DNA of 64,000 bases from Haliotis asinina (lineage: Eukaryota; Mollusca; Gastropoda; Lepetellida; Haliotidae), in contig NC_090291.1 of the NCBI RefSeq assembly GCF_037392515.1, forward strand, positions 19,185,501 through 19,249,500. The letters are read 5' to 3'. Every line of letters begins with the position of its first letter. The first letter of the stretch is position 1. The notes beneath the pieces were generated by a model that was not told the origin of the DNA, did no database searches, and worked only from the letters and a program-made list of their open reading frames with translations. Shown piece by piece: positions 1,607 to 57,831 of this stretch. The position numbers and the translations under genes were made by a program.

Positions 1607-1786
1607 TCAGATTCCGGGAGACTCCGCCACGACGATCGAATTGTACGAAGAATCGGTCATGAAGCTCACGAAATTTGTAACTCCGGACGTCTGAGTTGAA
1701 CAGTCCGTCACAGAGTTGACCAGACCAACGGTGATATATTCGCCTGTGTAAGCTTCCAGGCAGACCAAAGCTCCACCAGAATCCGT
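1607..1786 (-). CDS. Gene 1 exon 15: trypsin-like C-terminus
   Basis: The acceptor ctgtttgttttcag precedes 59 codons and TGA. It reads TDSGGALVCLEAYTGEY, then VGLVNSVTDC: the GDSGGP block and C-terminal strands of a trypsin fold, with the serine kept and the preceding Gly changed to Thr. It joins exon 14 in phase 0, giving CQTDSGGA. It is separated from exon 14 by a 6.1-kb intron that holds the LINE. Confidence 0.82.
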   Translation of the reverse strand, partial: TDSGGALVCLEAYTGEYITVGLVNSVTDCSTQTSGVTNFVSFMTDSSYNSIVVAESPGI

Positions 1787-7700: not shown

Positions 7701-10700
7701 TTGAAAAATAATACAAGACTTCTCAACCAATTGAAAACCGACATTTCTGTGTGAGGTAAGATAAATATTTGATAACTATAATAAATTTTATTTGGTATAT
7801 CAGACGCCGAGCATAATTCGTCAACAATATAACATACAACAGGCCATTGGCTGCCTGAGATTTTTAACATGACTTAACCTCACCTGGCAACTGACGGCTT
7901 CTGCAGCTGTTCCCGTGGAGCACAGCGTATCTCCGGTGCATGTTGGATCCAGAGTTATCGGCCCTTCTTTGGCAACTTGACTTGTACCTACACACAAAGG
8001 ATAGACTGGCTGTTCATGTGTGTCGGTCTGAATCGCACTTGTTAACTATGCACATACTTCAAAGGTAGGAGTAACTAAGTTATTCAAACGATGAATGTTG
8101 TTAACAAGCAGCGTAAGTTCATACTTCAAAGGTTGGAGTAACTAAGTCATTCAAATGATGAATATTGCTAACATGCAGCATAAGTTCATGCTTAAAAGGT
8201 TGAAGTAACTCTAGTTCAGAAAACAAGAACATCTTGGCAGAATTCGAAATCACGAGACTGTGTGCTATTAAGGTGAAAGGGTTTCACATAAGGGCTTCCA
8301 GAAATCTCAAGTGGATAAGCGGGAACGTTCACAAGCAGTTAGTTTGAGTTTACATGAAAAGCATATTATAATTGTCCATTGATCTGTGTTCATTAGAAGA
8401 TGACACATTTGTACTTACTTCCTGTTTCATCAACACCAAAACCGACCAGTTTACAAGACGATTCATCGATGGTCATCCTATTATTTGGAACGCAGGCAGG
8501 TAGACGACAAACTGGACCCTGAGCGACCGGACTCGTCAAGGTCAACGTGTACACTTCTGGAATGAAGTTTAGGACATATATCGGACCCCAAAATATGACC
8601 CCGATCGGCAGGAAGCCCGCTAGAGATGTTGGACGCTACATTGAAGGTGAAAACCATTGTAACAGGGGTGACAGAGGCTACGGAGCTTAGTCTTATTGTT
8701 GTTACATAATTATTTTGCAAGAGGAGGGCACTTAACCTTCTACGACTTCTAGCTTTTGAGTAATTCTTTTTCCACTACTTCTTCTTTTTCTTCTACTACT
8801 ACTACTACTACTACTACTACTGCTGCTACTACTACTACTAATACTACTACTGCTACAGCTACAGCTACTGTTACTGTTGTTGTTGCTGCTGCTACTACTC
8901 CTACTACTACTACTACAGATCCGGGTTGGAATTTGTCTTCTGTAACCCATACTTGTCGTAAGAGGCGACTAACGGGATGGGGTGGTCAGGCTTGTTGACA
9001 TGGTTGACACATGACATCGTATCCCAATGGCGTGCTCATGTTGTGGATCACTGGATTGTATGGTCCAGACCTCTATTATATACAGAGCACCGCCATATAG
9101 CTGGTATATTATTGACATTGAGGGCGAAACAACTATTGCTGTAGCGATGGTTTGTTGCGACAAACTATTGTAATACCATAGCAAAAGGGTTCTTTTTAAA
9201 GTCATTTCTTAAATGAAAGCATTGTTTATATGAAACAAAAATAAGCTGAAGTAGATTCAGTCTCTTTCAATAACTGACAAGAAACTTGAAACCCAAGTCA
9301 AGTAAACAGTCAAGTTTGTTTAAGGGATAACAGTTGCAGATAACTCTAAATCAAAGTGAACGAATCTGGTGCTGTATATTGCACCGTATATTTGTCAACG
9401 GAAGTCAATCACTGAACTATCGATAGTGACACATACTATCGATGCATCGATAGGTTTTCGTCTCTATCAATTAACTGATATCGGAGACAATTACAAGTTA
9501 TCGATAGTTCGATAGATCATTACATCCCTAATTACTGAGTGCAACAAACCACCCAAACTACTACTGTAAGTGATACTCTTACTACTGAGTCTTGGCATAT
9601 GTATGTGATGAAGAGCGATTTATTTTTCCCTGACCAGTGGCTAAATACTCCTCTGCGCAAGCACGCGCACATAGCTTACCCCCATTTCCTACGGGCAAGA
9701 ACTGACGGTACTGCGGAATTATGAAATCCTGTTGGTCGGCTTCGTTGTCCACGGTTGTGTTGTGCTCTCCAACAACAGCTTTAACGCTGTCATACAACAT
9801 GATTCTAGAAAAAAAGACAAGCATCAAAGATTCAGAGCAGTCATTGTCTGGTATTTGGTCAGCACAAGACCCGCGAAGATTCGGGTTAGAATCGATCTGC
9901 AGTAGCCCGTGCTTGTCGTAAGAGGCGATTTACGGGATCGGGAGGTAAGGCTCGCTGACTTCACTTGACTCATGTCATCGTATCCCAGTTGCGATGCTCA
10001 TGCTATTGATGACTGGATTGTCTGGCCTAGTTTCTGTTATTTAAAGACAGCTGTAAACCTAAACTCACTCACTGCTCAGAACAAATCACCCACTGCTCAG
10101 AACACATGGTTGTTTTCACAAGTTGGTAAAAATATATGTTTGGACATTAACAGTTAGTACACACATTTCTATGTTTTAATGTATTGCATTGTACTTTGTT
10201 GTGCTTAGAGGAACTGGTAAGCAAATAACTGAGGCATCCTGGTGAGTGTACAAAATGACAGCGTATTGAGAAAATTATTACATCACGGCACATCAGCTCA
10301 GAATGCGGGTAAATCCCAAGGTATTGCGGGTCACACGTTTACCACTTCGGTGAAACTGTCGAGAACACGTACCGTTTTGGTCCATTCCCGCATCTAGCAG
10401 GCTCCCAGTTCTAGATGTACTGCAGCCCGGGTAATTCCTGCTGGTTAGGCGCCACGGACGGTGAGTCAGTTAAAATTTACCCCGCTACAGCAGTATTTCA
10501 ACAATATCACAGAGGTGGACACCAGAAATGGGCTTCACACATTGTACACATGTGGGAATCGAAGCCGGGTTTTCGGAGTGGTGAGCGAACGCTTTAACTA
10601 TTAGGCTAGCCCCACCGCCCCTGCACGGTGACAAAGACGAATATTGCATCAATGGAAAACGACTGTTATTCACTCTGAGGAAGTCCGTAAGGACCTGTTC

Positions 10701-22170: not shown

Positions 22171-22202
<32 letters not shown>

Positions 22203-25200: not shown

Positions 25201-28200
25201 GTTGGGTTAAATGCCGCTTTAAAGAGTTTTACAACTACATGTGTTTGTTTGAACAAGCTCGACATGATGTTGGTGTCAAAGTTTTGGCACGTTGGTGAAA
25301 CTAGGTCTGGTTTGACGCCCGTTTTAGACGTATTCCAACAATATTGCGACGGTGATGACCATCCTGGGTATCAAACCACAAGACAAACCCATCGCCAACC
25401 AACCCAACCAACGAGCGTAGGTCTGGTTCTGGCAAACCATGATTCGGGGTGAAAAAGGATGCGAATCCGCAATTTTATGGGTTTCTAACATTCTGAAGGG
25501 ACACAGCAAATCTCAGACCACTTGACAGCCTCTGACGTTCATAATTATGAAGATGCTACGGAGATGAGTAAAGTTTAAAGGGTAAATCAAAGGTGACATC
25601 ATCTGCTTTCAGCAACGTCTTATGCTTAAATTACCCATACCCCTTGTACAGCAAGTAGCTGCTTCTTCTGTGTCTTTGCATATCTTCTCTATTGTTGTTG
25701 CTGAAGTAGTTGCAGATGTTGTTGCTGATGTTGTCGCTGACGTTGTAGCAGAGGTCGTTGCTGATGTTGTTGCCGACGTTGTAGCTGATGTCGTTGCTGA
25801 TGTTGTCGCCGACGTTGTAACAGAGGTCGTTGCTGACGTTGTAGCAGATGTCGTTGCTGACGTTGTCGCCGACGTTGTAGCTGAGGTCGTTGCCGACGTT
25901 GTAGCTGATGTCGTTGCTGATGTCGATGACGTTGTAGCTGACGTCGTTGCTGATGTTGTCGCTGACGTTGTTGCAGAGGTCGTTGCTGATGTTGTCGCTG
26001 ACGTTGTAGCTGAGGTCGTTGATGAGGTCGTTGCTGACGTCGTAGCAGATGTCGTTGGTGACGTCGTAGAAGAGGTCGTTGCTGATGTTGTAGCAGATGT
26101 CGTTGCTGAGGTTGTTGCTGACGTTGTTGCAGAGGTCGTTGTTGATGTTGTTGCTGACGTTATAGCTGATGTTGCTGATGTTGTCGCTGACGTTGTAGCA
26201 GATGTCGTTGCTGACGTTGTAGCTGATGTCGTTGCTGATGTTGTCGCTGACGTTGTAGCAGAGGTCGTTGCTGACGTCGTAGCAGATGTCGTTGGTGACG
26301 TTGTAGCAGAGGTCGTTGCTGATGTCGTTGGTGACGTCGTAGCAGAGGTCGTTGCTGATGTTGTAGCAGATGTCGTTGCTGAGGTTGTTGCTGACGTTGT
26401 AGCTGATGTAGTTGCTGAGGTTGTTGCTGACGTTGTTGCAGAGGTCGTTGCTGATGTTGTCGCTGACGTTGTTGCAGAGGTCGTTGCCGACGTTGTAGCT
26501 GATGTCGTTGCTGATGTTGTCGCTGACGTTGTAGCTGATGTCGTTTCTGATGTTGTCGCCGACGTTGTTGGAGAGGTCGTTGCTGATGTCGCTGACGTTG
26601 TAGCAGATGTCGTTGCTGATGTTGTTGCTGACGTTGTTGTAGTAGTCGTAGTTTCCGATGTCGTTACACACCACGGCGCGCACATCGGTATGGAACATCT
26701 GTACTCTGCCACAAAAGGACAAGCACCGATAACTGTGTCCACGTAAATGGAATGACAAGCAAGTATTTGCAGAGGAATCTGTCAACTCGAATACTGAGAC
26801 GAATCTCTATAAGATTAAAAGATTAATCAATTATCAATTAAAATCTGCAGATCCTTCTCAATGGAATCGTGACAAAATCTGTACGACAGTTCACCTTGAA
26901 AGTGACCGCTCAAAATATTTAGTTACATTAGTACATAATACATTTTTGATAACTCAAAACACTTCAGATAATACTCAACCCACGTCCCAAGACAAGTCCA
27001 GCTCGAATAGGTTCCATTGTACCGAGCCTTAATGTATTTACTAACATTCGCAATAGTAATGAGCACACTGCGATAATATTTTCACCACGACGTTATTCAC
27101 AGAAACAATGAAAACGTCAATGAGGATAGTTCTACGGATATACAACAGATGCGACTTTTCCGTGCAGATGTTAACACCGTTATCAAGCAAGTCATAAATA
27201 TAGTCTGGTTCATAATTATTGAGAATTTTTCTTCTTACTTTGAGCTATCCTAACACCTCAACTGATTCACTGATACTTAAAACTAAGTTATGGTATAAGG
27301 GAGGTAACTCATCTTGGCCTACTGAGTACAATTAGAGTTACCTCCCCTGAATTTGTAGCAGACGTCATTTTCCTCAGCACTGTCAACAATGTCTGCTGAA
27401 GATAAAAGAAGGTTGATTTTTGAGTTGTGTAATCAAGGAATTGATGATGTAAATACACTGGCAGAGAGAACAGGAACTCCTCTTTCTACCGTGTATAGGA
27501 TTAGGAAGAATTTTAAAGAGGGAAAGGTTTTTGGGCACCAGAAAGGAGCAGGGAGACCCAGAAAATTGGACTTCTCAGATCGCGTCCGGCTGGGAATTTT
27601 AGCGTCTAAAAAGCAAAGGGCAAGCATCTCCAACATCAGGTATGAAATGATAGAAAGGGGATCAACAGTTGTATCAAAATCGACAGTTAGAAGAAATTTG
27701 ATTGATCTTGGATGGGAGAAAAAGACTGGAATTCCTTCTCCTCTCATGAAACAAGAACATAAAGACAGGCGTGTTGAGTGGTGTTTGGCACATGAAAACT
27801 TTGACTGGGAAAATGTGATTTTTACTGATGAAAGCTCAATATGGGTATATCCCGATAATGTGAAAATATGGACAAAGTCTGCGTCAGCACCGTTGTATCG
27901 ACGGCATAAATACAGCCCAAAGTTTCATCTATGGGGAGGGATACCCTTATTAGGAACGACCCCGCTGTGTGTGTTTGAGGGAAATCTGACAAGTCAACGC
28001 TACACTAACATATTAGATAATTTTCTCCTTCCAAGTGCACATGTGTTTTATGGAAATGACTGGATTTTGCAGCAAGATAATGATCCTAAACACACCGCAA
28101 AACATGCCAAGCAGTGGTTTCAGGAGAAAAATGTGACTGCATTACCATTTCCTGCATATAGTCCTGACTTAAATCCCATTGAGAACATTTGGGGGATGAT

Positions 28201-31200
28201 GAAGGAATGTGTGAATCAAAAGGGGTTGACAAAAATTGAAGACATGAAGAGAGAAGTGGTCCGATACTGGGACAGCATAACTCACGAGACACTAACCTCT
28301 CTGATAGGAAGTATGCCTACCCGTCTTAGACTGTGCCGTGAAGCTCAAGGAGACTTGATAAAATATTAAATTGTTACCTACACAACATGAAAAGGTCAGT
28401 TCACTTTCACAATACATTCAGTTTTATCTGATTTGTTCTCGTTTAATAATATGAAATGCTTTAGCTATTCTCAATAATTTTGAACCATACTGTACATCTA
28501 ACAACACTAACATGTCTCTAAACGTCAATATGAGCACCTCGGTTTCTTTAACAAACATGTTTTAAATGTATCTGGGGGAGTGATTACGAACATAATTAAT
28601 TAAGAACATTTATAACGCGCCATTCCAGGCGTTGTAACACTTACACATTATGCTCCTTAAGTACTGGATTGCAAGAATATAAATACATTGATCTGAATTC
28701 TTATTTCTGTTATTTAGATGCAATTGGATGTCAAGTATCAATACATCATTGTCACTTAAATATAAGATCATTAATTCAGTTTTATAAATGTGGGATCATC
28801 TCAACTGAAAATGTGAAACGCTTGAAAGATATTCACAAAACAATGTCACTTTAATGGAACAGTAACCTTTACAAATACCCATTTAAGTAATCATTGGCTG
28901 GAAACAAGACATGGACTCACGAGGGTAGATGACGCATATAGGTGGCATCTCGGGTGGTACATAGTACGTGCAAGAACAGTTGGTGCTTGGAAGCACGTTG
29001 GTCAGGCAGTCCGTGCACGACGCGTCACCTTGGTTTGCCTCACAATACGCAGCTAAAATAAATATTACAAACACATATCATTAATTGCTTCAAACCTTTA
29101 AACATTCGCTGGAAAATATATTGCTTTTATTTTTTCACGCAATTTCCAATTTCCAAATATATTTTCAAATTATTTAAGAGCTTTAATCAAAAATTCACGA
29201 GACAGTTTTCCTCTCGCTGGAAAAAATATACCTTTATTCACTCCTATTCATAGATCAAATAAAGTGCCAATTTCCCAAAGGAATTATTACTGTGTTCACA
29301 TATGCTCAGAATATGATAAGAATATTCTGATGTCATTGTGCAGAAATAATGCCAAACCTAACCTGTGATCTTTATCCGTTTATACTGGAATAAGATTTTC
29401 CATGATGAAAGAAATCCAAACTATCGGGTTTTAAAACTGTGATTAAAATATGTCTATTCCTTCACAGTAGAAATAGGTTCTGGGCACAAAGACACGGTAT
29501 CTACGTTGTAATGGTCATTGTTGGTCAACATGTCCAGAATGAAGTTTTGAACGTGTGTCAATCAAGTCAGCGGGTCTGAGCCCACGATTACTCACGACAA
29601 GCATGAGTTACTGAAGACCAATTCTAACCCGGATCGTCGCTATGTAACTGCGATATTAGTCAACCCAACATACTTCTATCTCACCTCATCACAGTTGATG
29701 GTATGTGATCATGAGCTGGTATGGTATCCTCGAGTGTCATACAATGTCAGGATGGTATGACTTCCAACAGATTAACTTGCAAAGCCCATTCCTCATTTGG
29801 CATAAGACTCTTTTGATCAGTACACTGAAAAGATCCATACCTCTTTGACAGCACGTATCTGCCTCCTCCGTCGTTTTGCATATCTTTGGTATTGGAGTTG
29901 TCTCCGATGTGGTTGCAGATGTGGTTGCTGATGTTGTAGCAGAGGTCGTAGCTGATGTTGTTGCTGATGTTGTAGCAGAGGTTGTTGCTGAGGTTGTTGC
30001 CGACGTTGTAGCAGAGGTCGTTGCTGATGTTGTCGCTGACGTTGTAGAAGACGTCGTTGCTGATGTGGTTGCTGAGGTTGTAGAAGAAGTCGTTGCTGAT
30101 GTTGTCGCTGAAGTTGTGGCAGATGTCGTTGCTGATGTGGTTGCTGACGTTGTAGAAGAAGTCGTTGCTGATGTTGTCGCTGAAGTTGTAGCAGAGGTCG
30201 TTGCTGATGTTGTCGCTGACGTAGCAGATGTCGTAGTGGTAGTAGCACTAGTGCTTGTTGTCTGAGATGTCGTCACACACCACGGCGCGCACATCGGTAT
30301 GGCACACCTATACTCTGCAAGAAAAAAAGTCACAGCTAATAACACAACATCACTCGACTTGAGTACGCAAATATACTCATGGTCAAAACTTTTGCCACCC
30401 GTAACTTTGACGTGTATTTAGTTTAGACGAAATGACAGATTCCAACATCGACAACATTATTTGCTCCAATTAAGGATAATGATATTCAGTATTACCTTTG
30501 TTGCAGGATACATCGAAACGATCTGTATTCACTGGGAGATGACAATACAAAGACCAGTGGATACAAGACTATTTTTGTTCAGGTTCCTCAAAGCGTCTGT
30601 AATGTTACTATATGTCGTAACTAAATAGTGTATCATTGGCTAACGATTGTCGTATCGGGCCCACAGTCGGAATTAAAATGTAAGAAACCGGATTCGTCCC
30701 ATACATAACATTAGACGCTTTAGTAATGTGTTGCGCCACTATGTCCGTGGACAAGGGAGATAATCCGCGAATGTATTCTGCCAGCACGTAGTTTCACTTG
30801 TAACACGTCCATCTGGTTCCATGGTCTGACCAGAGCATCACTCAATGCTGCCAAATACATGGTCATCACGTAATGTCGCCCTTTTGGAACGACCTAGTCG
30901 CTTAATGGGATGATCGAATTTTGTCTCCTCTTATTATTTTTGATTCCCACCCCCCCCCCCCCCCCCCCCCCCCACTAGTTCTGCCATTAACTTTGAGCGC
31001 GATTTGTTGCCTCAGTTCTGACCAATCCGGTTTTTTGTTACGCATTTAGGGAGGAGCCTCCTTCGACGAGGTTACGTATATGTAATCGACGGGAAAGACT
31101 CTGTTTCAATCCACGTAAAGAACCATGAAACACGTTTTGGTCCGATTTCCAAGTGCTTCACGCACAACATGGTCACTTCGCTTGTTTGTTGTTAAAACCA

Positions 31201-34200
31201 AACTCAGCAACATTTCAGCAATATGACATTGCCAGGAGGAGTTGGACCTAATAATCCTGTGATCAACAGCATGAGCACTGGCCATGGCAATTGGAATACA
31301 ATGACAAACTTTAAGTGTCAACCAAGTCACCGAGCCTGTCCACCCGATCCCGTTATTGTTGCCTCTTACAACAAGCATGTCACTGAAGACCAGTCCTCCC
31401 CGAATCTTCACAGGTTGGTAAGTGCTGTGTTATGGTGTGTCTGATCACATGATTTAATCTGCTGACGCACCCATTTTGCAAATATTTGTACGCACACGAG
31501 TTAAAAAGTAAACTACAAATCGATAACGCGTGGTGACACTAATTATCATCATGAGCATACGTATTGTACTGTCACAAAATGTCGACTTTAGTACACCACC
31601 AAGTAAAATCTGACTTACTCTGTCTCCCATACAATCAACTACCAAATATGTATGGTATTTACACAAGAAATGTGAGTTGTTTGTCTAAAGAACATAAATA
31701 AAGGAATCATCAACAAATGTAAACATTCATAACAATTATTTAAAGATCCATTCGACAATATATTGCAGTTGACTCACGAGGGTAGATGACGCATATAGGT
31801 GGCATCTCGGGTGGTACATAGTACGTGCAAGAACAGTTGGTGCTTGGAAGCACGTTGGTCAGGCAGTCCGTGCACGACGCGTCACCTTGGTTTGCCTCAC
31901 AATACGCAGCTAAAATAAATAGGACAAACATAAATCATAAATTGCTTCAAACCTTTAAACATTCGCTTCGGTGGAAACTACATTGCTTGTAGTTTTTCTC
32001 GCAATTTCCAAACATATTTTTAAATTATTTAAGAGCTTTAATCGCATCAAAAATTCACGAGACTGGAAAAAATATACCTTTATTCACTCCTATTCATACA
32101 TCAAATAAAGTGCCAATTTCCCAAAGGAATTATTGCTATGTTAACATATGCTCAGAATATGATAAGAATATTCTGATGTCATATTGCATAAATAATGCCT
32201 AACCTGACGCAAAACAATACATTCTCATTTTGAAGCATGCAGCAGTATTTTAGCTATACGAATCAATCGCGTCTGTGTCGGAAAATCCAATGATTGACAT
32301 TATGAGCATCGAGCTACGCAACTGGGATACGATGACATGTGCTAGTCAGCGAGCCTGACCTCCCGATACTGTTCGCCACCTAACACGTCAAACATCGGTT
32401 GCTGAAGATAATTCTAAACCAGATCGTCAAAGGTAAATGAGTGAGTGAGTTTAGTTTTAAGCCGCACTCAGCAATATTCCAGGTTGGCGGTGGTGTGTGA
32501 ATAATCGAGTCAGGACCAAGAAATTCAGTGATCAACATCATGAGCATCGATCTATGCAATTGGGAACCGATGATATGTGTCAACCAAGTCAGCGAGCCTG
32601 AACACCAGATCCCGCCTCTCACGACAAGCTCAGTCGCCTTCTGTAGCAAGCATGAGTTGCTGAAGGCCTATTCTACCCCGGACCTTCACGGGTCTAAAAA
32701 CACTACAGGTTCCACCATATCTATGTTCCATGTCACCTACGTGTCATGTGTTCAACCATAACCGATATCTTTTCGTCGTAATTATTTTATTTAATCGAAC
32801 ATTTCAGCTGGACATAAAAGTCGCGTTACCTCTTCTGCAGCATACATCAGCTTCCTCATCATTTCTGCATATCTTTGGGAGCGTTGTGGTAGTAGTCGTT
32901 CTTGTTGCCGAAGTCGTCTGAGAGGTTGTCATTGATGTAACAGGTGCATCGGGATTGCTGCAGTTGCATGTAGAGGCAAACAGGTCCTGACAGGCGCCAT
33001 AACGAGCGTCACCAGTTACAGAAAACAGAAACAAAGCGCCACCTGAAATTACAAAATGTCGTGAATTCGTTCAGTATTACACACGGACAACGGATTTTTA
33101 TTCCAACTTCCGATTTTAATGTGTCGGTGAGAGAAAAATTGCTCCTTGTGCTCATATGTATGAATTTAGCAATATATTGCAGTACTATCACAGTGGGGAC
33201 ACCAAAATGGACTTCAAGCACTGTACGCATGTGGGAATCGAACCCGGGTCTTCGAGTGATTTAAGCAGTAATCGTTGTATCTGTGACATTCGAAGCCACA
33301 GTACGAGGGGATATAAAAAGGTGGTGAACCTCACTAAGACAATGATATAAATGCCGCTGTTTTTATGTTCTGTTTTTCTACATATGTTCTGTGAACCTCA
33401 AGCAAATTGGTTTTGCTATGTTCCAGCCTCAAGATCTCCATTAAAGTGCATGACTACCCGGCATGTTTAATGAAAGAGCTTGTTTTGGAGATAATACCCA
33501 TCCCCCTCCAGATGACGTAATCATAAGGGCATAAACTGATTCTAATGTTTTCACCATTCATACATGATGCTAAGGGTCGAGTTTAAATATTGAATGGTCA
33601 CACAAGTGTCAGCTCCCAATGTGCTCAGCTTGAATATCTGGACACAATGTTTTTGAAAGATCAAAACAGGTGTGTCCTTAGAAAACATTTCTTTTCTAAT
33701 TCCTTATGAAGCAATCCACATTTTGGACTGTTGATTGTGCCGGGAATTCATCCAAGACCATACTGAACATATTTCACATGATATCACCTGAAGACATACC
33801 ATTATCCAAGAGGTACCAAGTGACATATCCTTTTCATTTCAACTGTGTTACAAATATGATACTCCAAAGTGTTGTGATGGCTCATATCTCGTGAAGTATA
33901 TTACCCACAAATGTGAAACTTTGGATTTGGCTTTGCTAATAATCCCTTCAGAATCAAAATGGAAACACTGGACATCGAGCATGTCATAAGGCTCACTACT
34001 ATTTGACAGCCCCCTGGAGGTGTCTGTCATGCTTTGGGGTACTCAGCACGCAGTGAATCGTCTCGCATGTTCATGCGACCAAATGTTGCTATATCTTGTG
34101 AGACCCAAGACACAGCAAATTTATAATCAGCTAGTTTTGTAGTTTTCGTCATAATATAAAACAATAACATCATTGCCACTGTGCAAAAACCTACGTTAAA

Positions 34201-35141
34201 CCAAAAATTAAACTGCACACAGGTTAATACTTTCCGTCATGGAAAATATTTATTCAAATGAAGGTGAATAATATATTTTATTTCAATGAAACTAAGGCCA
34301 ATATTGTAGGTGTAATCAGTAAAGTTGTTTTTTTTCCAATATGCTGAAATCATCGTTAAATGAAGTTCTGAGAGCGTGAGTACTTGAGATTGGTTTTACA
34401 CCTCACTCAGGCGTTGCATTTATCGTTTACACCGCACTCAACAATATTCCAGCTATATGGCGGTGGCCCTATTTAAGTAGTCGAGTCTGGACTAGAAAAT
34501 CCAATGATTGATCTGATGAGCGTCAATCTATGCAAAAGGGATTGCGTCAAGTTGCGAACCTGACCACCCGATCCCGTTAGTCGCCTTTTACGACAGGCAG
34601 TGGTTGCTGAAGATCAGTTCTATCAGATCTTCACGAGTCAGTAGAGTTAAGAAACGATTAAAAGAAGACGGTAACCTCTAAGATATTTAAAATAATTAAC
34701 CTCAAGTTCAAAGTCACCAAGCTGACGCTACATAGCTCTTTGCGTTTATCATCCAACTGCGATGCACTCACTTTGGTCCCATACACAGCACGATGGGCAG
34801 TCAGCAGGTGCTTGTGTGGTCGCTGTTGTCGTTGCAGTGCAAGAGCAGTTGACGGAACTGAACGTTGACGCATCACAGTCGGTGCAGAGGGTGCTAGAAA
34901 CACCATCCACAACACACGTGTTATCTGCAACACAGATCAGCCTGTATTTCCCAATCAAAGTCCACGGGTTACATTGCAAATGATGAGAAACACGATGATG
35001 ATGATGATGCTTAAAATATATATCATCAGTCCGTACACTTTAGACTAGAACTGAATCTGTGCCAGTATGTTCAAATACTTATTGCGTTATCTTTATAGTC
35101 CAATAGATTTTATGGTACACATACCTACTGTAAATGAGTAT

Positions 35142-35180
<39 letters not shown>

Positions 35181-36242
35181 TTAAAGACGAATGTAAAATA
35201 TCACAGGGGGTGACTGGTACCCCTGATTTTGTTCATATCCAGCTTGATGGTATTGTTCTTGGATCACTATTAATCATATAGAGTTCCTACTCAAGAGGCC
35301 AGACCATGAAGTGTGTATCGTAAGAAGATACTCACAATTACTGCAACACGACTCATGTTCCGATGTGGACTTGCATGGCAGATCTGCCCTCTTTTCTCTC
35401 CTAAGTACGCCCTTGCTGGTCGACTTATCTTCACAGTACACGCTCAAACTTGGAATTAAGTAAGATGCAGCTGCACAGTCAATAAATACATAGATTAAAG
35501 GGTAGTTATTTCTATATTACAAATGCCAAATTACATTTACAGATAACAGTATATCTGGAACCCTCCAGTTGTGGCACATACGATGTTCTCCACATGAAAA
35601 CTATTGCAACAACAGCAACAATTGAATTCATGATAGAAAACATTTACAGGACATATCATCTTGAAGCTTTTGAACATGTAATATCATATTTTGAATATAT
35701 TGAGAACAAAATTAATACGACATATGATAAGCACAAATACAAGATGGATACTTCATTCAAAATGTATTCAGGAGGTCTGAACGGTTTAAAATTCGCTTTG
35801 GTTAAACTTTAATATTTTCAACTGAAAATCCCAAATGGTACCGCTTAGGCGATTGTCATTTGACTCCAAAAATGGATGGAATGGATTTTCAGTTTCGTTT
35901 GACCATATGCCTATTAAAATGATTCATATCGAAACAACAGAATGGGCTGTTCATAAAACGCAGGATGATTTGAATAAACACTCACCACTTAACTACGAAC
36001 CAAAACGCAGTATTATTCATTTTCGACATATGGGTGTGTTCAATACAACTTAATTTAAAGATAACAGGAATAAGTAGCATGGTCACTCAGTTGTACAATT
36101 GTACTGTTCTTTTCTTCCTTCAAACAGATAACACTGTCGCAATGGCAAGCACAACAGTGTACATACCACAACTCAGGGAGAAGCCCTGTGTAGAAACACA
36201 GAGACTCAAGGCAATGAGAAGAAACAGGATAATTGACTTCAT
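1607..36242 (-). CDS. Gene 1: giant secreted mucin-like pseudoprotease, 15 exons
   Basis: The span holds a 15-exon gene rebuilt from splice sites and phase. Exons add to 10,605 nt, 3,535 codons with stop. Order in the protein: signal peptide (1-25); Cys-rich module pairs A/B (26-839), with Thr/Ser-rich inserts in the later A modules; a TTS(A/P/V) repeat domain (840-3299); a trypsin-like fold (3300-3534) starting with a zymogen-like RKRLVGG site. Catalytic His is replaced (SKDC) and the Asp strand reads QVYTLTLTSP, while the DSGG serine motif remains, so proteolysis is unlikely. Secretion and heavy O-glycosylation are inferred from composition. Fourteen junctions keep frame, most of them phase 1. 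No transcript was available; one unseen or mis-set exon is possible. Function unknown. Confidence 0.78.
1787..2767. other. Gene 1 intron 14, part before the LINE
   Basis: AT-rich intron with no gene. The part from about 2640 to 2767 matches a dispersed repeat also seen near 43940-44060 and 58440-58550 ('gggtatcgga' followed by 'gaagttgcgag' here). The LINE has split this copy. Confidence 0.6.
2755..2767 (+). repeat. LINE target-site duplication, left copy
   Basis: tatagtaagaagt, repeated exactly at 7483-7495 on the other side of the retrotransposon. It marks the insertion site. Confidence 0.7.
2912..3937 (+). CDS. LINE ORF1 protein with 2A-like sequence
   Basis: 341 codons from ATG to TAG. 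Residues 44-72 are hydrophobic, followed by GDVELNPGP at 74-82 (DNA 3131-3157), a match to the ribosome-skipping 2A motif; skipping would separate residues 1-81 from the rest. Residues 90-165 are rich in K, E, D and heptad-like leucines (coiled coil). About 175-320 resembles the RNA-binding region of L1-like ORF1 proteins (YNKRNNVLLYGVSE, then EAHRIGR). The likely role is RNA chaperone in the retrotransposition particle. The 2A activity is inferred from motif only. Confidence 0.8.
   Translation: MGIPLDVWRARIGTFSHPHGTRQVGHVSPYTPYTEWPWYVDVGYRLLATYVLLTSIYNASFIVVFVWSNILLSGDVELNPGPTGKTSHISESDLEAMKNDILQEFRAMKNELMRDMRDIKTQTRKLSSTVDDIKRNIQDIQGEQSVLRLDIEAVSDRLDKLECNPPRQSGSGQHDVIDLLKEVEKLEQYNKRNNVLLYGVSEKPEEVSWDLRALSCEILNDCLDSDSVRLSPEDIAEAHRIGRRPSQTKRTRPIIIKFFTSDCKIRSLGLRNALRSKGYGVGSDLTHRQRKILQDLRSQNKRGYFRNGELVVSESTDTSNTDTACSIVESIPHVNPPPTNT
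3938..3973 (+). promoter_or_regulatory. Structured ORF1/ORF2 junction after the ORF1 stop
   Basis: Directly after TAG (3935-3937) lies the perfect palindrome GGGTGTGGCCACACCC (3938-3953), able to form a 6-bp stem with a GGCC loop. A second hairpin AGCCGTTCGGCT follows at 3962-3973. ORF2 continues in the same frame as ORF1 and this stretch has no ATG. Stop readthrough or stop-coupled reinitiation is inferred. Confidence 0.6.
3938..7384 (+). CDS. LINE ORF2: AP endonuclease and reverse transcriptase
   Basis: The frame is open from the codon after the ORF1 stop, with no ATG before the endonuclease begins (FLFWNISGF). Numbering from 3974: catalytic-type LLETW near 36-40, GGDFNAR near 157, VIDYIIVS and SHQP near 243-270, which together mark an APE-like endonuclease. 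The RT follows, with FADD at 744-747 (DNA 6203-6214). A C-terminal CLQC...H...C motif lies near 1067-1085. It nicks target DNA and reverse transcribes element RNA. Intact, about 1,136 residues. Start mode is uncertain. Confidence 0.87.
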   Translation, partial: GCGHTQLHSRSALNVNKQFLFWNISGFLNKLSDTCFTDYISDFDIIGLLETWTIDYDYDHIFHEHIPYSINALKTAIRGRPSGGITVLVKKSLNNYVKTSKITENAVFLLIDKTAFSLDKDVLYASVYVNPSGSTWYTHKQIKCGITLFCNSLVEVLGSRNKDVHVIVGGDFNARTGTLCDAIDNDISDILGDEYMSSFEDSVNIDRSSCDKIINSAGRVLVNMCAALNMSILNGRCGADSGIGDFTFINQSGSSVIDYIIVSNCLFSYCKHFEVVSRADSSHQPLACSFQSRDPATDDSVEVARAKRVTDRYVWDLKYLQQFRENLLLPAVVDIFEKCILPVDEIDKVVTQFTAVICEAAGSMKRHKKTRFVHSEPWFDAECRFHRSERERLLKVFRGNKTDVHLSNYIKARNTYTSILRNKRKAYYDKVSDKIARSLHDSKAFWSTLKGLSSSANTRSPNITICEWADHFKNLFLSDDQSEVSVMDETDSDNCDDMTRFILDSPISQEEVFTAIEGLKCGKSSGTDLLIPEFFKYTTDILVPYLAALFNAMFEQAYFPESWSEAVIVPLYKKGDIHSPSNYRGISLPSVFSKVYVSILNRRLTYWCEAYCKIVESQAGFRHDYSTIDNIFILQSIIQRYLSKQKVKLYCVFVDFAKAFDSVSRLKLWSVLKSRGVSPKMVNSVQAIYSSVKATVKFDNVLSGFFPCSRGVRQGCVLSPLLFSIFINELAVEIERCSGPGIQLHPDVIQIFILLFADDIVLISDSIGGLQKRINVLETFCIEYGLEVNLDKTKVVVFQKGGILSRRESWFYNGRKLEAVTSYKYLGITFTRGLSWSSHCSNAALQGKKALFGVLKTISKLSNISLELYFKIFDRKIAPILLYGAEVWGFYQNDCIESVHTLACKRFLGVKISTTNNIARGECGRFPLYILAYKRVIKYWLKLLGMSESRHPKKCYHMMLMALDHNRVNWASKCRDLLYSLGFGFVWEQQTVTSPTSFLTEFENRLKCIHEQNWFSSLQNGSKSTCYSYFKTSLSREPYLNVISIKKFRVALAQFRCFSHQLRIETGRYYKIDRNDRLCLQCEEGYIEDEYHFLLVCSKFKQLRLNHLPKAFCINPCKAKFKLLMSSLDCNLINNLASFIYHAMYLRC
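7483..7495 (+). repeat. LINE target-site duplication, right copy
   Basis: tatagtaagaagt, identical to 2755-2767. Confidence 0.7.
7496..7883. other. Gene 1 intron 14, part after the LINE
   Basis: It continues the dispersed repeat interrupted at 2767. The stretch with gagttatctccc (7553-7564) and 'attactaacacgaaatacca' matches 44100-44260. No gene seen. Confidence 0.55.
7884..7987 (-). CDS. Gene 1 exon 14: protease domain
   Basis: The acceptor ttgtgtgtag and donor CAG|gtgagg bound 104 nt. Two bases complete a Ser codon, then 34 codons run from TSQVAKEGPITLDP to AVSCQ. The final CQ is the Cys normally just before GDSGG. Phase matches exon 13 (1 nt left) and exon 15 (phase 0). Confidence 0.8.
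8041..8215. repeat. 67-bp tandem repeat, about 2.5 copies
   Basis: Units begin at 8053, 8120 and 8187 (catacttcaaagg, catacttcaaagg, catgcttaaaagg), with diverged bodies around 'agtaactaagt' and 'gatgaat'. It lies in gene 1 intron 13. Confidence 0.75.
8419..8556 (-). CDS. Gene 1 exon 13: protease domain, Asp strand lost
   Basis: Acceptor ttcattccag, donor GGAA|gtaagt. It encodes VYTLTLTSPVAQGPVCRL to CKLVGFGVDETG. It aligns with exon 5 of genes 2 and 3 (PVTVTLDSP, CPGIACV, CQVAAGG). In trypsins this strand holds the catalytic Asp (D-I-A-L-L); here the position reads Q or V. CKLVGFG matches the usual C-x-V-x-G-W-G. 138 nt, phases 1 and 1. Confidence 0.8.
8770..8920. repeat. Imperfect (CTA)n microsatellite
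   Basis: About 150 bp of ctt/cta/ctg triplets. It runs directly into a SINE at its right end and explains the Thr-only and Ser-only readings in this stretch. Confidence 0.85.
8917..9112 (+). mobile_element. SINE family 2, 5'-shortened
   Basis: It begins at agatccgggttgg, contains 'cgtaagaggcgactaacggg', and stops at 'gccatatagctggtatatt'; the ctca tail is lost. Confidence 0.75.
9417..9525. repeat. Cluster of ATCGATAG palindromic motifs
   Basis: ctatcgatag, ctatcgatgcatcgatag and atcgatagttcgatag lie within 110 bp, followed by 'cattacatcccta'. This could be the end of a small hAT-like non-autonomous element. No second end was found. Confidence 0.4.
9866..10071 (+). mobile_element. SINE family 2, nearly full length
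   Basis: It runs from 'gacccgcgaagattcgggtt' to 'cctaaactcactcact', with a degraded core (cgtaagaggcgatttacggg) and a worn 3' part (ctgttatttaaagac). Confidence 0.75.
10462..10622 (-). mobile_element. tRNA-headed SINE, nearly full length
   Basis: On the minus strand it starts with gggcggtggggctagcctaa (A-box-like) and carries a B-box region altered to 'cccggcttcgattcccac', then the body 'ttctggtgtccac' and a tail toward 10462. Typical of an RNA polymerase III retroposon. Confidence 0.75.
10871..10962 (-). CDS. Gene 1 exon 12: protease domain
   Basis: 92 nt from acceptor gggtcaaacag to donor AAGC|gtaagt. One base completes a Pro codon, then ACVGDCKLSYQNHQDS to DRISVVSK. It sits where trypsins have the loops between the His and Asp strands. 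Upstream stops in this frame and the phase needed by exon 11 (2 nt left) together fix the acceptor. Less certain than its neighbours because it is short. Confidence 0.68.
10963..11946. other. Gene 1 intron 11
   Basis: No exon is supported. Two overlapping minus-strand frames around 10995-11256 are open but show no family resemblance and no fitting splice phase. Confidence 0.5.
11947..12139 (-). CDS. Gene 1 exon 11: start of protease domain, His replaced
   Basis: Acceptor gtgatgttcgcag, donor CCC|gtgagt, 193 nt. It encodes CLYTLLNSLGRKRLVGG, then CQYPGLVLF, FCSGVLLN and ATSKDCANSY. RKRLVGG corresponds to the zymogen cleavage site (R|IVGG), the paired Cys to the His-loop disulfide, and SKDC to AAHC, so the catalytic His is Asp here. 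The split codon with exon 10 (A + AA, Lys) fits exactly. Confidence 0.83.
12196..12338 (-). mobile_element. tRNA-headed SINE
   Basis: The minus-strand head has 'cctagtggttaaagcgtccg' and 'gacccgggtacgattcc' (B-box-like); the tail 'gctagtacttaactcattca' is worn. The head end abuts gene 1 intron sequence. Confidence 0.75.
12599..12690 (+). mobile_element. SINE family 2, internal fragment
   Basis: Only the middle part is present: 'tttggttgacacatgtcatc', 'gatgctcatgcttttgatcg', 'gtctggtccagacccgatta'. Confidence 0.7.
12937..20316 (-). CDS. Gene 1 exon 10: 7.4-kb TTS(A/P/V) mucin repeat exon
   Basis: A single 7,380-nt exon from acceptor cgtatgtattacag to donor CCGA|gtgagt, open for 2,459 codons. 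The protein is almost only Thr-Thr-Ser plus one variable residue (mostly Ala, also Pro, Val, rare Ser), a 12-bp period, with a few poly-Thr runs. Two bases at its start complete an Ala codon with exon 9, and one base is left for exon 11, so the whole array is in frame. Such Thr/Ser arrays are usual substrates of mucin-type O-glycosylation. Length may vary between alleles or be mis-assembled. Confidence 0.85.
12990..20316 (-). repeat. 12-bp coding tandem array with higher-order blocks
   Basis: About 600 units of a 12-bp repeat. Higher-order blocks recur: the marker gtagatgatg plus 'gttgtgaccgaggtggtgg' (plus strand) begins at 13365, 13992, 14823, 16131, 17244, 18081 and 19476, with spacings of 627-1395 bp and near-identical surroundings. 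The part above about 19600 is more diverged. This points to block duplication of long segments, not only slippage. Confidence 0.85.
20376..21895 (-). mobile_element. Tc1-like DNA transposon, one stop from intact
   Basis: About 1.5 kb bounded by inverted repeats at 20376-20405 and 21866-21895 (30 bp, two mismatches: 'gaacatcattgaaaac', 'caccacc'), with TA at both ends. It carries a transposase on the minus strand. It inserted in gene 1 intron 9, leaving only 59 bp to the exon 10 acceptor. Confidence 0.85.
20571..21584 (-). pseudogene. Tc1-like transposase with one premature stop
   Basis: A 338-codon frame starting MPRLSPEEREQALGML. It has a paired-like helix-turn-helix N-terminus (RRFGCHHSTILRLANRY), then FSDESRF, QxDNA-type HDNARAH and SPIEHLWD. 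Spacing of the last two acidic residues is DD34E, the Tc1 pattern. It cuts and pastes the element at TA sites. One in-frame TAA at 20871-20873 sits just before the second catalytic Asp; the rest stays open to the end. Relatives normally have Gln there, so a single transition explains it. Confidence 0.85.
24330..24510 (+). mobile_element. SINE family 2
   Basis: It reads 'gtaacccgtgcatgcttgtc', 'aagaggcgactaacgggatt', 'gttgatcactagatcgtctg', then breaks off into a caaacaaac simple repeat in place of its normal tail. Confidence 0.75.
24570..24722 (-). mobile_element. tRNA-headed SINE, full length
   Basis: Tail gagtgagtttagttttacgc, 'cggcgggggacaccagaaaa' body, then 'ggggaatcgaacccggattt' B box and 'cttttaccactaggagggta' A-box region, ending 47 bp from the exon 9 donor. 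Confidence 0.82.
24769..24906 (-). CDS. Gene 1 exon 9: Cys-rich module B4
   Basis: Acceptor tttgtcttacag, donor CCCG|gtgggt, 138 nt. It encodes PYCVANYPADSSC, CMEDILPSTNCSCT and PPICLLP. It matches the other B modules (YC-x-AN, SC-x-x-C, LPSTNCSCT, PPIC). The one base left (G) joins CC of exon 10 to give Ala, leading straight into the TTS repeats. Confidence 0.8.
24935..25076 (-). mobile_element. tRNA-headed SINE, shortened head
   Basis: It shows 'ttgggttttacgccgctttt', 'cacggcgggggcaccagatg' and 'gtggggaatcgaaccggcgt'; several bases of the B-box region are deleted. Confidence 0.78.
25190..25400 (-). mobile_element. Degenerate tail fragments of the tRNA-headed SINE
   Basis: Two weak partial matches: 'ggttgggttaaatgccgctt' and 'ggtttgacgcccgttttag...ccaacaatattgcgacggtgatgacc'. 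Heads are not recognisable. Confidence 0.4.
25641..26705 (-). CDS. Gene 1 exon 8: module A4 with a long TTSATTS insert
   Basis: Acceptor ccttttgtggcag, donor AGGG|gtatgg, 1,065 nt. It starts YRCSIPMCAPWCVTTS, continues for about 320 residues of TTSA-type repeats, and ends KICKDTEEAATCCTRG. Both Cys ends match exon 6. The repeat looks inserted in the middle of an older Cys module. Phase 1 at both ends, so it can be duplicated or skipped without a frameshift. Confidence 0.82.
27201..28492 (+). mobile_element. Intact Tc1-like DNA transposon
   Basis: 1,292 bp with TA on both sides (27199-27200, 28493-28494). Inverted repeats of 26 bp lie at 27201-27226 and 28467-28492 (few mismatches; shared 'attattgagaat'). 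An inner inverted pair gaggtaactc / gagttacctc (27301-27310, 27335-27344) precedes the gene. Confidence 0.88.
27389..28369 (+). CDS. Tc1-like transposase, intact
   Basis: 326 codons, ATG to TAA. N-terminal helix-turn-helix (TPLSTVYRIRKNF) with a GRPRK hinge near residues 55-60, a second DNA-binding helix set to about 110, then the DDE domain: FTDES, QQDNDPKHTA and DLNPIENIWG. Spacing of the last two acidic residues is 34, the Tc1 signature. It excises and inserts the element at TA. No stop or frameshift, so it could still be active. It runs antisense to gene 1 within intron 7. Confidence 0.9.
   Translation: MSAEDKRRLIFELCNQGIDDVNTLAERTGTPLSTVYRIRKNFKEGKVFGHQKGAGRPRKLDFSDRVRLGILASKKQRASISNIRYEMIERGSTVVSKSTVRRNLIDLGWEKKTGIPSPLMKQEHKDRRVEWCLAHENFDWENVIFTDESSIWVYPDNVKIWTKSASAPLYRRHKYSPKFHLWGGIPLLGTTPLCVFEGNLTSQRYTNILDNFLLPSAHVFYGNDWILQQDNDPKHTAKHAKQWFQEKNVTALPFPAYSPDLNPIENIWGMMKECVNQKGLTKIEDMKREVVRYWDSITHETLTSLIGSMPTRLRLCREAQGDLIKY
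28921..29052 (-). CDS. Gene 1 exon 7: Cys-rich module B3
   Basis: Acceptor tttattttag, donor CCTC|gtgagt. It encodes AYCEANQGDASCTDC, then LPSTNCSCTYYVPP and ICVIYP. The 132 bases are identical to exon 5 (31778-31909), and similarity extends into the flanking introns for several hundred bases, so this is a recent duplication or gene conversion. Confidence 0.82.
29053..29840. other. Gene 1 intron 6
   Basis: The first about 340 bases match the intron after exon 5 (31910-32200), part of the duplicated block. A worn SINE-like stretch near 29550-29640 was seen. No gene. Confidence 0.55.
29841..30314 (-). CDS. Gene 1 exon 6: module A3 with a TTS insert
   Basis: Acceptor ttttcttgcag, donor AGAG|gtatgg, 474 nt. 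YRCAIPMCAPWCVTTS opens it, about 115 residues of TTSA/TTSS repeats follow, and it closes KICKTTEEADTCCQRG. Same layout as exon 8 but with a repeat one third as long. Confidence 0.82.
30950..30973. repeat. Poly-C run (C24)
   Basis: 24 consecutive C on plus, so G24 on the transcribed strand of gene 1. Its true length may be misread in sequencing. Confidence 0.9.
31205..31412 (-). mobile_element. SINE family 2, reversed, diverged
   Basis: On plus: 'tgtgatcaacagcatgagca', 'cgatcccgttattgttgcct', 'cactgaagaccagtcctccc'. The tail end is worn. Confidence 0.65.
31778..31909 (-). CDS. Gene 1 exon 5: Cys-rich module B2
   Basis: Identical over all 132 bases to exon 7. Same acceptor and donor contexts; phases 1 and 1. 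It joins exon 4 through a split Ala codon. Confidence 0.82.
32262..32425 (-). mobile_element. SINE family 2, reversed, partial
   Basis: On plus: 'aatccaatgattgacattat', 'agtcagcgagcctgacctcc', 'ggttgctgaagataattcta'. The part with the ctca tail is missing. Confidence 0.65.
32436..32693 (-). mobile_element. SINE family 2, reversed, full length
   Basis: On plus it runs from 'gagtgagtgagtttagtttt' through 'cagtgatcaacatcatgagc' to 'cccggaccttcacgggtc'. It is among the most complete copies, and ends 137 bp from the exon 4 donor. Confidence 0.8.
32830..33042 (-). CDS. Gene 1 exon 4: module A2 with a short TTS stretch
   Basis: Acceptor tttgtaatttcag, donor AGAG|gtaacg, 213 nt. It encodes GALFLFSVTGDARYGACQDL, then TCNCSNPDAP, about 20 residues of TTSQTTSATR type, and KICRNDEEADVCCRRG. 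The C-terminal half matches exons 6 and 8; the N-terminal half differs. The tiny Thr/Ser part may show the starting point of the later expansions. Confidence 0.8.
33164..33262 (-). mobile_element. tRNA-headed SINE fragment
   Basis: On plus: 'tttagcaatatattgcagta', 'cagtggggacaccaaaatgg' and 'gtgggaatcgaacccgggtc' (intact B box). The A-box end is lost. Confidence 0.7.
34400..34640 (-). mobile_element. SINE family 2, reversed
   Basis: On plus: 'acaccgcactcaacaatatt', 'cgagtctggactagaaaatc', 'acccgatcccgttagtcgcc', 'agatcttcacgagtc'. Nearly full length. Confidence 0.75.
34772..34924 (-). CDS. Gene 1 exon 3: Cys-rich module B1
   Basis: Acceptor tctgtgttgcag, donor CAAA|gtgagt, 153 nt. It encodes NTCVVDGVSSTLCTDC, FSSVNCSCTATTTATTQ and DCPSCCVWDQ. 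It keeps the C-T-D-C and N-C-S-C-T signatures of the B modules, but is the most diverged and has its own Thr-rich patch. Confidence 0.8.
35139..35181. repeat. (ATTT)n microsatellite
   Basis: About 10 atttattt units in gene 1 intron 2. Confidence 0.9.
35336..35470 (-). CDS. Gene 1 exon 2: module A1 with furin-like site
   Basis: Acceptor ttgactgtgcag, donor AATT|gtgagt, 135 nt. It encodes ASYLIPSLSVYCEDKSTSKG, then VLRREKRADLPCKSTSEHES and CCSN. The CK-x-x-x-E-x-x-CC end matches the A modules, but there is no Thr/Ser insert. RREKR is a furin-type cleavage motif and could release a propeptide. The acceptor was chosen for its pyrimidine tract and phase. Confidence 0.75.
35471..36166. other. Gene 1 intron 1
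   Basis: AT-rich, about 700 bp; nothing recognised. Two short plus-strand frames here have no family features. Confidence 0.6.
36167..36242 (-). CDS. Gene 1 exon 1: signal peptide
   Basis: ATG at 36242 down to donor TGTG|gtatgt. MKSIILFLLIALSLCVSTQ is a typical secretory signal, followed by GFSLSC. One base left joins exon 2 (G + CT, Ala). The ATG is the first after the TATA box and the signal peptide fits it. Confidence 0.82.
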
Positions 36243-53620: not shown

Positions 53621-53697
53621 CTGAAATATCAACATCCTCTTCGTCAGTTCTTTTACAAAAATGGATACAATGGATGACCTAAACCCATCTTAAATTT

Positions 53698-53792: not shown

Positions 53793-53801
53793 TTACAATA
53801 C

Positions 53802-57817: not shown

Positions 57818-57831
57818 CTGAAACAGAAAAT

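What the first reader, a model, noticed from the sequence alone, without database searches (positions are those of the whole stretch)
1607..36242. A 15-exon giant mucin-pseudoprotease gene
Seen: 15 exons whose splice sites and phases all agree, giving about 3,534 residues with signal peptide, four Cys-module pairs, a 2,459-codon TTS repeat and a trypsin-like end. Known: mucins and trypsin folds are separate families. Inference: this is a secreted gel-forming or coating protein carrying a dead protease as binding or assembly domain. I know of no described family with this layout, but could not search.
Basis: partly seen in the sequence, partly recalled or inferred. Interest (0 to 1): 0.88.

Follow-up and report, generated by a model that had tools for sequence, protein, structure and literature searches.

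The report
Mucin genes ending in dead trypsin
This animal chromosome carries a row of related genes, each predicted to encode a secreted, threonine-rich slime-type protein that ends in a trypsin that can probably no longer cut, and the gene in this window is one of the two giants of the row.

Summary
On the minus strand, 36242 to 1607, 15 exons with GT-AG splice sites and matching phases encode 3,519 residues: signal peptide, four pairs of Cys modules, a 2,460-codon TTSA repeat exon and an S1 trypsin domain (Pfam 46.9 bits). The triad is broken: His57 to Asp, Asp102 to Glu, Ser195 kept. The repeat is coding: between neighbouring units 72.5% of third codon positions differ, but only 6.7% and 2.9% of first and second.

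At least eight copies lie in about 173 kb on one strand. A sister gene has a 4,356-codon repeat; two smaller copies lie in this window. All eight lost His57 and Asp102; seven lost Ser195. The seven aligned copies keep 11 cysteine columns (a twelfth in five), Arg15 and Asp194. dN/dS on the dead domain is 0.17 and 0.27 in two pairs. Active trypsin genes lie about 0.3 Mb away.

Best reading: secreted mucins whose dead trypsin is a disulfide-held, cleavage-switchable binding or assembly end. Expression, tissue and species are unknown.

The parts
36167..36242 (-). Gene 1 exon 1: ATG and signal peptide (MKSIILFLLIALSLCVSTQG...); TATATATAA about 50-58 bases upstream of the ATG
34772..34924 (-). Gene 1 exon 2: Cys module A1, class 1-1
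32830..33042 (-). Gene 1 exon 3: module B1 (short T-rich stretch, KIC...CC tail)
31778..31909 (-). Gene 1 exon 4: module A2
29841..30314 (-). Gene 1 exon 5: module B2 with TTSA repeats
28921..29052 (-). Gene 1 exon 6: module A3, same protein sequence as A2 (452-base block 89% identical to the A2 region)
25641..26705 (-). Gene 1 exon 7: module B3 with a longer TTSA array
24769..24906 (-). Gene 1 exon 8: module A4
23941..23997 (-). Gene 1 exon 9: head of module B4 (GLCSLPLCVPYCAATTTEP)
12937..20316 (-). Gene 1 exon 10: giant Thr/Ser/Ala exon, 2,460 codons, 596 TTSx units, no stop
11947..12139 (-). Gene 1 exon 11: propeptide Cys, KR|LVGG activation site, Cys42, TSKDC (His57 replaced by Asp)
9680..9804 (-). 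Gene 1 exon 12: trypsin GEHN segment
8419..8556 (-). Gene 1 exon 13: Asp102 replaced by Glu (GEVYTL), Cys122, Cys136
7884..7987 (-). Gene 1 exon 14: Cys168, Cys182, Cys191
1607..1786 (-). Gene 1 exon 15: TDSGG (Ser195 and Asp194 kept), Cys201, Cys220, stop
39423..48695 (-). Gene 2: complete small paralogue, 7 exons (48695-48449, 44768-44472, 43833-43641, 41854-41811, 40725-40561, 39940-39783, 39590-39423), 423 residues; triad Asn/Gly/Met
53465..63748 (-). Gene 3: decayed paralogue. Signal peptide at 63748, short T-rich exon near 59070, trypsin pieces 58328-58147, 55349-55185, 53981-53802, 53620-53465; frames disagree in the first trypsin exon and the Asp194-Ser195 segment is absent

Best explanation
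Shown from sequence: the window lies in a tandem family of at least eight genes, each with a Thr-rich mucin-like exon upstream of an S1-type trypsin domain that has lost its catalytic triad. Gene 1 and its left neighbour are enlarged, with pairs of class 1-1 Cys-module exons and TTSA repeats of 2,460 and 4,356 codons. The repeat reading frame (both giants) and the dead domain (two pairs of small copies) show purifying selection. Inferred: the family arose when a trypsin gene of the local cluster gained upstream mucin and Cys-module exons and then lost catalysis. Inferred mechanism: the protein is secreted and densely O-glycosylated. Another protease can still nick it at the kept Arg15|Leu/Ile/Met16 site. 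The new N-terminus pairs with the kept Asp194 and reorders the domain, while the Cys1-Cys122 bridge holds the mucin on. The dead trypsin then works, as in hepatocyte growth factor, as a switchable binding surface, here one that links or anchors a mucus or coat polymer whose Cys modules cross-link it. The confidence is for the whole statement; I would put the gene and family part at about 0.93 and the switch mechanism at about 0.4.
For: The gene model is consistent in splice sites and phases. Wobble test: gene 1 differences between neighbouring 12-base units are 6.7/2.9/72.5% at codon positions 1/2/3, 1,616 synonymous to 221 other, against 12:24 for random single changes of the consensus unit; g0 6.6/1.5/70.7%, 2,812:327. 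Same layout in neighbours: the T-rich scan found a stretch upstream of the trypsin exons in 7 of 8 copies, and in gene 3 a shorter one is seen by eye. Trypsin intron phases of genes 1 and 2 are identical. Triad 57/102/195: g0 Q/E/V, g1 D/E/S, g2 N/G/M, g4 N/G/F, g5 N/G/F, g6 N/G/A, g7 N/G/N (alignment of 7); g3, left out of it, reads N/G/absent. In one search, 11 Cys columns are Cys in 7 of 7; Cys182 is in one column in 5 of 7, g0 and g1 having a Cys a few residues off. Arg15 7 of 7, Asp194 7 of 7. dN/dS 0.27 (g4-g5, 217 codons) and 0.17 (g2-g4, 220 codons). Profile links: g2-type to active trypsins 92.8%, E 3.8e-7; g0/g1 to active 96.7%, 4.1e-10; g0/g1 to g2-type 96.3%, 1.5e-9. Nearby L032 and L033 keep H/D/S, and L033 shares the two extra cysteines. 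Their last intron is phase 0 right before GDSGG, as in gene 1, and they have a phase-1 intron within two or three codons of residue 102. Tree: the 7 dead rows are split from 4 active rows with 100/100 support.
Against: There is no transcript, protein or tissue evidence. The two-chain switch is inferred from kept residues only; residue 16 is Leu or Met, not Ile, in g0, g1, g2, g4 and g5. The smaller members are so divergent that Pfam does not call them trypsin (g2 12 bits, below cut-off; g4 and g6 no trypsin match; g5 and g7 not scanned), so their fold rests on profile comparison and cysteine positions. Gene 3 is decayed, and the last exon of g0 is out of frame by one base after FDVGG, so some copies are dying. 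In the tree two active rows sit on long branches that meet, and four forks are open. No vWD, CK or other known mucin assembly domain was found in the two module pieces scanned. The selection estimate on the dead domain is from two pairs of small copies, not from gene 1; the g0-g1 comparison is not usable.
Confidence: 0.6

Rival explanations
1. Immune or protease-network role: the dead trypsins are decoys or cofactors in a protease cascade, like insect serine protease homologues or the inactivated trypsin paralogues of scabies mites, and the mucin part only holds them in a surface layer.
For: Multi-copy tandem family with varied residues at position 195 (V, S, M, F, F, A, N), on a chromosome with active trypsin genes about 0.3 Mb away. 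Pseudoproteases as cofactors or decoys, and the scabies mite paralogues, are named in passages of PMC13194640.
Against: No CLIP or other cascade domain in the pieces scanned. The repeats of 2,460 and 4,356 codons are under strong selection to stay TTSA, more than a tether needs.
Confidence: 0.22
2. The mucin exons and the trypsin exons of gene 1 are two neighbouring genes, joined by mistake.
For: No transcripts were seen. In gene 1 the open frame upstream of exon 11 holds in-frame ATGs (MTICVMFAECLYTLLNSLGRKR), which could start a separate protein; g6 also has one ATG five codons before its first trypsin Cys.
Against: A T-rich exon precedes trypsin exons in all 8 copies, on one strand. In gene 2 the T-rich exon is about 640 bases from the first trypsin exon, phases agree, and the only signal peptide I saw is upstream of both. 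In 5 of the 7 copies checked the frame upstream of the first trypsin exon has no ATG before a stop.
Confidence: 0.07
3. The trypsin end is a decaying passenger with no function; only the mucin part matters.
For: Gene 3 has a frame break and a lost Asp194-Ser195 segment, and g0 is out of frame in its last exon.
Against: dN/dS 0.17 and 0.27 on the dead domain in two pairs; 11 Cys columns, Arg15 and Asp194 in 7 of 7 aligned copies.
Confidence: 0.09
4. An antifreeze-type glycoprotein: Thr/Ala-rich repeats grown on a trypsin gene, as in Antarctic fish, with the trypsin end a leftover of birth.
For: Formal likeness to the chimeric afgp/tlp genes, in one of which about 6.5 kb of Thr-Ala-Ala repeats without linkers stands in a locus with trypsinogen genes (passages of PMC10256766).
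Against: The repeat is TTSA, not TAA. Cys modules and signal peptide exons are present, and the dead domain is under selection.
Confidence: 0.03

Closest known systems
Hepatocyte growth factor / macrophage-stimulating protein (S1 pseudoprotease ligands; passages of PMC13194640)
   Same: Dead S1 domain with a zymogen-type cleavage site. There, cutting to a two-chain form switches on binding through the pseudo-active site. The disulfide link of the chains is recalled; the equivalent Cys1 and Cys122 are kept here.
   Different: They carry kringle and PAN domains, not mucin repeats (recalled); none was found here.
Chimeric afgp/tlp genes of notothenioid fish (passages of PMC10256766)
   Same: Long Thr-rich repeat exon joined to a trypsinogen-type gene, in a locus with trypsinogen genes.
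   Different: Thr-Ala-Ala against Thr-Thr-Ser-Ala. One chimera is reported in P. georgianus (a pseudogene) and three in D. mawsoni (one apparently complete), regarded as intermediates; here at least 8 copies with Cys modules and a dead domain under selection.
Limpet pedal-mucus protein P-vulgata_8 (passages of PMC7333891)
   Same: A protease domain lacking its catalytic motif (HEXXH) joined to tandem SPTT repeats, in animal mucus.
   Different: Metalloprotease (adamalysin) and nine repeats in an incomplete sequence; not a trypsin.
Insect SP22D / Tequila / Apis SP23 (passages of PMC1761132)
   Same: Trypsin domain in a long modular protein; [quoted passage not shown]
   Different: Chitin-binding, SRCR and LDLR-A domains. 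That paper lists them as proteases (SP, not SPH), so I take the triad as intact.
Gel-forming mucins (MUC2, MUC5AC type; recalled)
   Same: One giant repeat exon of Thr/Ser codons with Cys-rich modules beside it.
   Different: vWD, C8, TIL and CK assembly domains not found in the pieces scanned; a dead trypsin sits at the C-terminus instead.

Membership tests
S1A trypsin family (PF00089), fold | Sequence match above the curated cut-off | tested here: met
   Gene 1 46.9 bits against 20.6; g0 26.4 bits. Not met for g2 (12 bits), g4 and g6 (none); these are linked by profile comparison. g5 and g7 were not scanned.
S1A trypsin family, active peptidase | His57, Asp102, Ser195 | tested here: not met
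   0 of 8 copies keep His57 or Asp102; 1 of 8 keeps Ser195.
S1A zymogen switch (HGF-like) | Arg15 cleavage site, hydrophobic residue 16, Asp194, Cys1 and Cys122 | tested here: met
   7 of 7 aligned copies (residues only). That cleavage and pairing happen is not testable here.
HGF / plasminogen-related factors | Kringle and PAN domains | tested here: not met
   No such match in the two composite N-terminal pieces of gene 1 scanned; A4, B4 and the small copies' N-termini were not scanned.
Mucins in the broad sense | Secreted, tandem Thr/Ser repeats in one large exon | tested here: met
   Signal peptide by eye, 596 TTSx units, coding wobble pattern. Glycosylation itself not testable.
Gel-forming mucins | vWD / C8 / TIL / cystine-knot assembly domains | tested here: not met
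   None in the Pfam scan of two module pieces.
Insect SP22D / Tequila group | Chitin-binding, SRCR and LDLR-A domains with active trypsin | tested here: not met
Notothenioid afgp/tlp chimera | Thr-Ala-Ala repeats in a trypsinogen-like gene | tested here: not met
   Repeat is TTSA, TTSP, TTSV; paper passages.
CLIP-domain serine protease homologues | CLIP domain before a dead S1 domain | tested here: not met
   No CLIP match in the pieces scanned.

The most novel reading that the evidence does not exclude
A new class of animal mucin in which a dead trypsin replaces the usual vWD/cystine-knot ends as the assembly device. Secreted soluble, it is set or anchored when a protease, perhaps of the neighbouring active cluster, nicks it at Arg15, so the slime is switched on by proteolysis while the chains stay joined by disulfide. 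The class was born from a trypsin gene, convergent with the origin of fish antifreeze glycoproteins.
Probability: 0.27. Interest if true: 0.86.

Novelty: new variant of a known kind. Interest (0 to 1): 0.7.

Why it matters
It shows a gene family, not one odd gene, that joins mucin repeats to a dead protease kept under selection. It offers a small complete member (gene 2, 423 residues) for structure and binding tests. It may be a second, independent case of Thr-rich repeats growing on trypsin genes. It also raises a testable idea: mucus assembly controlled by cutting a pseudoprotease.

Tried and rejected
Rejected: coding on the plus strand of the repeat. The plus DVVA frame is open, but adjacent-unit changes are 1,431 synonymous to 440 other, against 1,616 to 221 in the minus TTSA frame; I looked for flanking exons on the minus strand only. 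Rejected: openness of the exon as evidence by itself, because two of the three minus frames and one plus frame are open through it.

Led nowhere: protein database search with the gene 1 trypsin domain, 663 candidates, none at E 0.001. A control with a transposase of the window found 963 of 1,441 candidates, the best 120 listed, three of them named from a sponge and rotifers. So the database holds some animal DNA, but genes with introns would be missed; one search is weak negative evidence. Solved structures: 21 distinct sequences with E at most 0.001, best plasminogen 1.7e-6. Paper searches aimed at such a layout, with the listings that I saw: 5 of 5; 3 of 3; 11 of 12; 15 of 520; 13 of 13; repeat string, 8 of 8, no protein paper on this repeat; 15 of 95; 6 of 1,061. 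None listed describes it; the long lists were seen only in part. PMC6626399 and PMC6003135 were read by passages; these do not describe it. PMC16512 is not held, so nothing of it was seen. Species was not identified: the COX1 search did not complete. The only answered whole-genome search with gene 1's trypsin gave 8 matches, all in gene 1 or g0. It missed g2 to g7, which are there, so its silence elsewhere says little. The same search with gene 2 did not complete.

I raised the two-genes rival from 0.06 to 0.07 for it and left the other odds. It also showed small errors at exon joins of the active rows (below).

Full report
WHERE IT LIES. Base skew shifts sharply at 13-20 kb, where the TTSA array lies. 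The species could not be tested. Tc1-type and LINE elements are present; that it is an animal follows from gene structure and genome size, that it is a mollusc is my guess only.

THE GENE. On the minus strand I rebuilt 15 exons: 36242-36167, 34924-34772, 33042-32830, 31909-31778, 30314-29841, 29052-28921, 26705-25641, 24906-24769, 23997-23941, 20316-12937, 12139-11947, 9804-9680, 8556-8419, 7987-7884, 1786-1607. All introns are GT-AG. The product is 3,519 residues, about 330 kDa before sugars, pI 4.2.

THE MODULES. A modules follow C-x(6-9)-C-x2-C-x(8-10)-C-x-C. B modules have a Cys head, a T-rich middle and a KIC...CC tail. B4 is split by an intron between its head (exon 9) and the giant repeat (exon 10), and lacks the tail. 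A2 and A3 have the same protein sequence, and a 452-base block around them is 89% identical. Since exons 2 to 10 are class 1-1, cassettes can be duplicated without breaking frame. In two composite pieces scanned, no Pfam family reached its cut-off (best MUCL1 14.8 bits against 35, New_glue 13.7 against 31).

THE REPEAT IS CODING. Exon 10 holds 1,230 Thr, 620 Ser, 519 Ala, 54 Pro and 31 Val. Comparing each base with the one 12 bases on, 6.7% of first, 2.9% of second and 72.5% of third codon positions differ; codon changes are 1,616 synonymous and 221 not. Random single changes in the consensus unit would be 12 to 24. No mutation bias that I know has such a period. The same holds in exon 7 (198:28) and in the sister gene (2,812:327). 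The plus strand reads DVVA with wobble in the same places, but with more replacements (1,431:440), so the minus strand is preferred on this test and settled by splice sites and modules.

THE TRYPSIN IS DEAD. The five C-terminal exons form an S1 domain. Aligned with four active trypsins of the same genome, His57 is Asp, Asp102 is Glu, and Ser195 is kept in TDSGG.

THE FAMILY. Tblastn of these exons over 294 kb of the chromosome (C12:19115501-19409500) showed that the window is part of an array, all on one strand, from about 19.146 to 19.319 Mb. g0, left of the window, repeats the layout: an A1-like and three A modules, B modules, a T-rich open stretch of 4,356 codons, five trypsin exons. g2 is complete with 7 exons and 423 residues, and its trypsin introns have the same phases as in gene 1. 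g3 looks decayed. g4 to g7 lie to the right of the window. Counting all eight, His57 and Asp102 are lost in 8 of 8 and Ser195 in 7 of 8. Seven copies were aligned, g3 being left out for its frame break. In 11 columns all seven have Cys; for Cys182 five agree, and g0 and g1 have a Cys a few residues off. These cover the five standard bridges and an extra pair near residues 25 and 116 (pairing inferred). Arg15 and Asp194 are kept in 7 of 7. The extra pair is also in L033, an active trypsin gene about 0.3 Mb away on the same chromosome. In L033 and L032 the last intron is phase 0 right before GDSGG, as in gene 1, and a phase-1 intron lies within two or three codons of residue 102, where gene 1 has its own phase-1 intron. 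Signal peptides were seen by eye in g1, g2, g3 and g4; the other four were not searched systematically.

SELECTION. For the dead domain, g4-g5 give dN 0.115 and dS 0.423 (0.27), and g2-g4 give 0.319 and 1.87 (0.17; dS near saturation); g2-g5 was saturated and the g0-g1 row was flawed. Against this, g3 and the last exon of g0 are out of frame, so not all copies are sound.

ARE THE SMALL ONES TRYPSINS? Pfam alone would miss them (g2, g4, g6 scanned). Profile comparison supports it: g2-type to active trypsins E 3.8e-7, to g0/g1 1.5e-9; g0/g1 to active 4.1e-10, and the triad positions fall in register. A tree splits the 7 dead rows from 4 active rows with 100/100, though two active rows have long branches and four forks are open.

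IS IT ONE GENE? In 8 of 8 copies a T-rich exon stands before the trypsin exons. In 5 of 7 copies checked no ATG lies in the frame upstream of the first trypsin exon. In gene 1 there are in-frame ATGs there, so a separate start cannot be excluded from sequence.

HOW IT LIKELY WORKS. Kept: a cleavable Arg15, a hydrophobic residue 16, Asp194, and Cys1 and Cys122 to hold the parts together. Lost: catalysis. In HGF such a domain, once cut, is part of a two-chain ligand that binds through its pseudo-active site (passages of PMC13194640). I infer a switchable binding or linking end on a mucin. Shown: anatomy, loss of the triad, selection in the pairs tested. Inferred: O-glycosylation, cross-linking by Cys modules, cleavage, partner.

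KNOWN OR NEW. Three precedents each share one aspect: the fish afgp/tlp chimera (repeat plus trypsin gene), the limpet adamalysin lacking HEXXH with SPTT repeats, and insect modular trypsins. None has this layout. None of the papers listed describes a tandem family of mucins with a dead trypsin, as far as titles, abstract starts and the passages read show, but several lists were capped (15 of 520, 15 of 95, 6 of 1,061). That library lacks most subscription journals and database annotations, so predicted orthologues may be listed somewhere as 'mucin-like'.

Noticed in passing
C12:19145765-19178100 (L009-L012), left of the window: Sister gene g0 with an uninterrupted 4,356-codon Thr/Ser/Ala stretch (about 13 kb), longer than the one in the finding; its last exon reads FDVGG and is then out of frame by one base.
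   Followed up: yes
window 39423-48695 and 53465-63748, minus strand: Two more genes of the same layout in the window itself, one complete (gene 2) and one decayed (gene 3).
   Followed up: yes
L014-L019, window scale 75300-133742: Four further small copies (g4 to g7) with position 195 as Phe, Phe, Ala and Asn.
   Followed up: partly
window scale 204192-204377 and 215365-215538 (C12 about 19.39-19.40 Mb): More trypsin-like first exons with Met or Val at position 57 (ILTSAMCA, ILTSAVCA) and a cysteine near residue 25; perhaps a second group of dead trypsins without mucin parts.
   Followed up: no
L032, L033 (C12:19545400-19549200, 19486000-19489300): Trypsin genes with intact H/D/S on the same chromosome, possibly kin of the ancestor.
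   Followed up: partly
window 2888-7384, plus strand: LINE with a 2A-like DVELNPGP motif (recalled) in its first frame and an RT frame of 1,148 residues, inside intron 14 of gene 1.
   Followed up: partly
window 27359-28369, plus strand: Apparently intact Tc1-type transposase; a database protein is 90% identical over its whole length.
   Followed up: partly
window 20874-21596, minus strand: Second Tc1-type transposase fragment upstream of the giant exon, in intron 9, which splits module B4.
   Followed up: partly
window 12137-12180 region, minus strand: In-frame ATGs in the open frame just before exon 11 of gene 1 (MTICVMFAECLYTLL...), a possible alternative start.
   Followed up: partly
window 47413-47820: Degenerate tandem repeats (GGAACCGTTAGGGAACAA type) between exons 1 and 2 of gene 2.
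   Followed up: no
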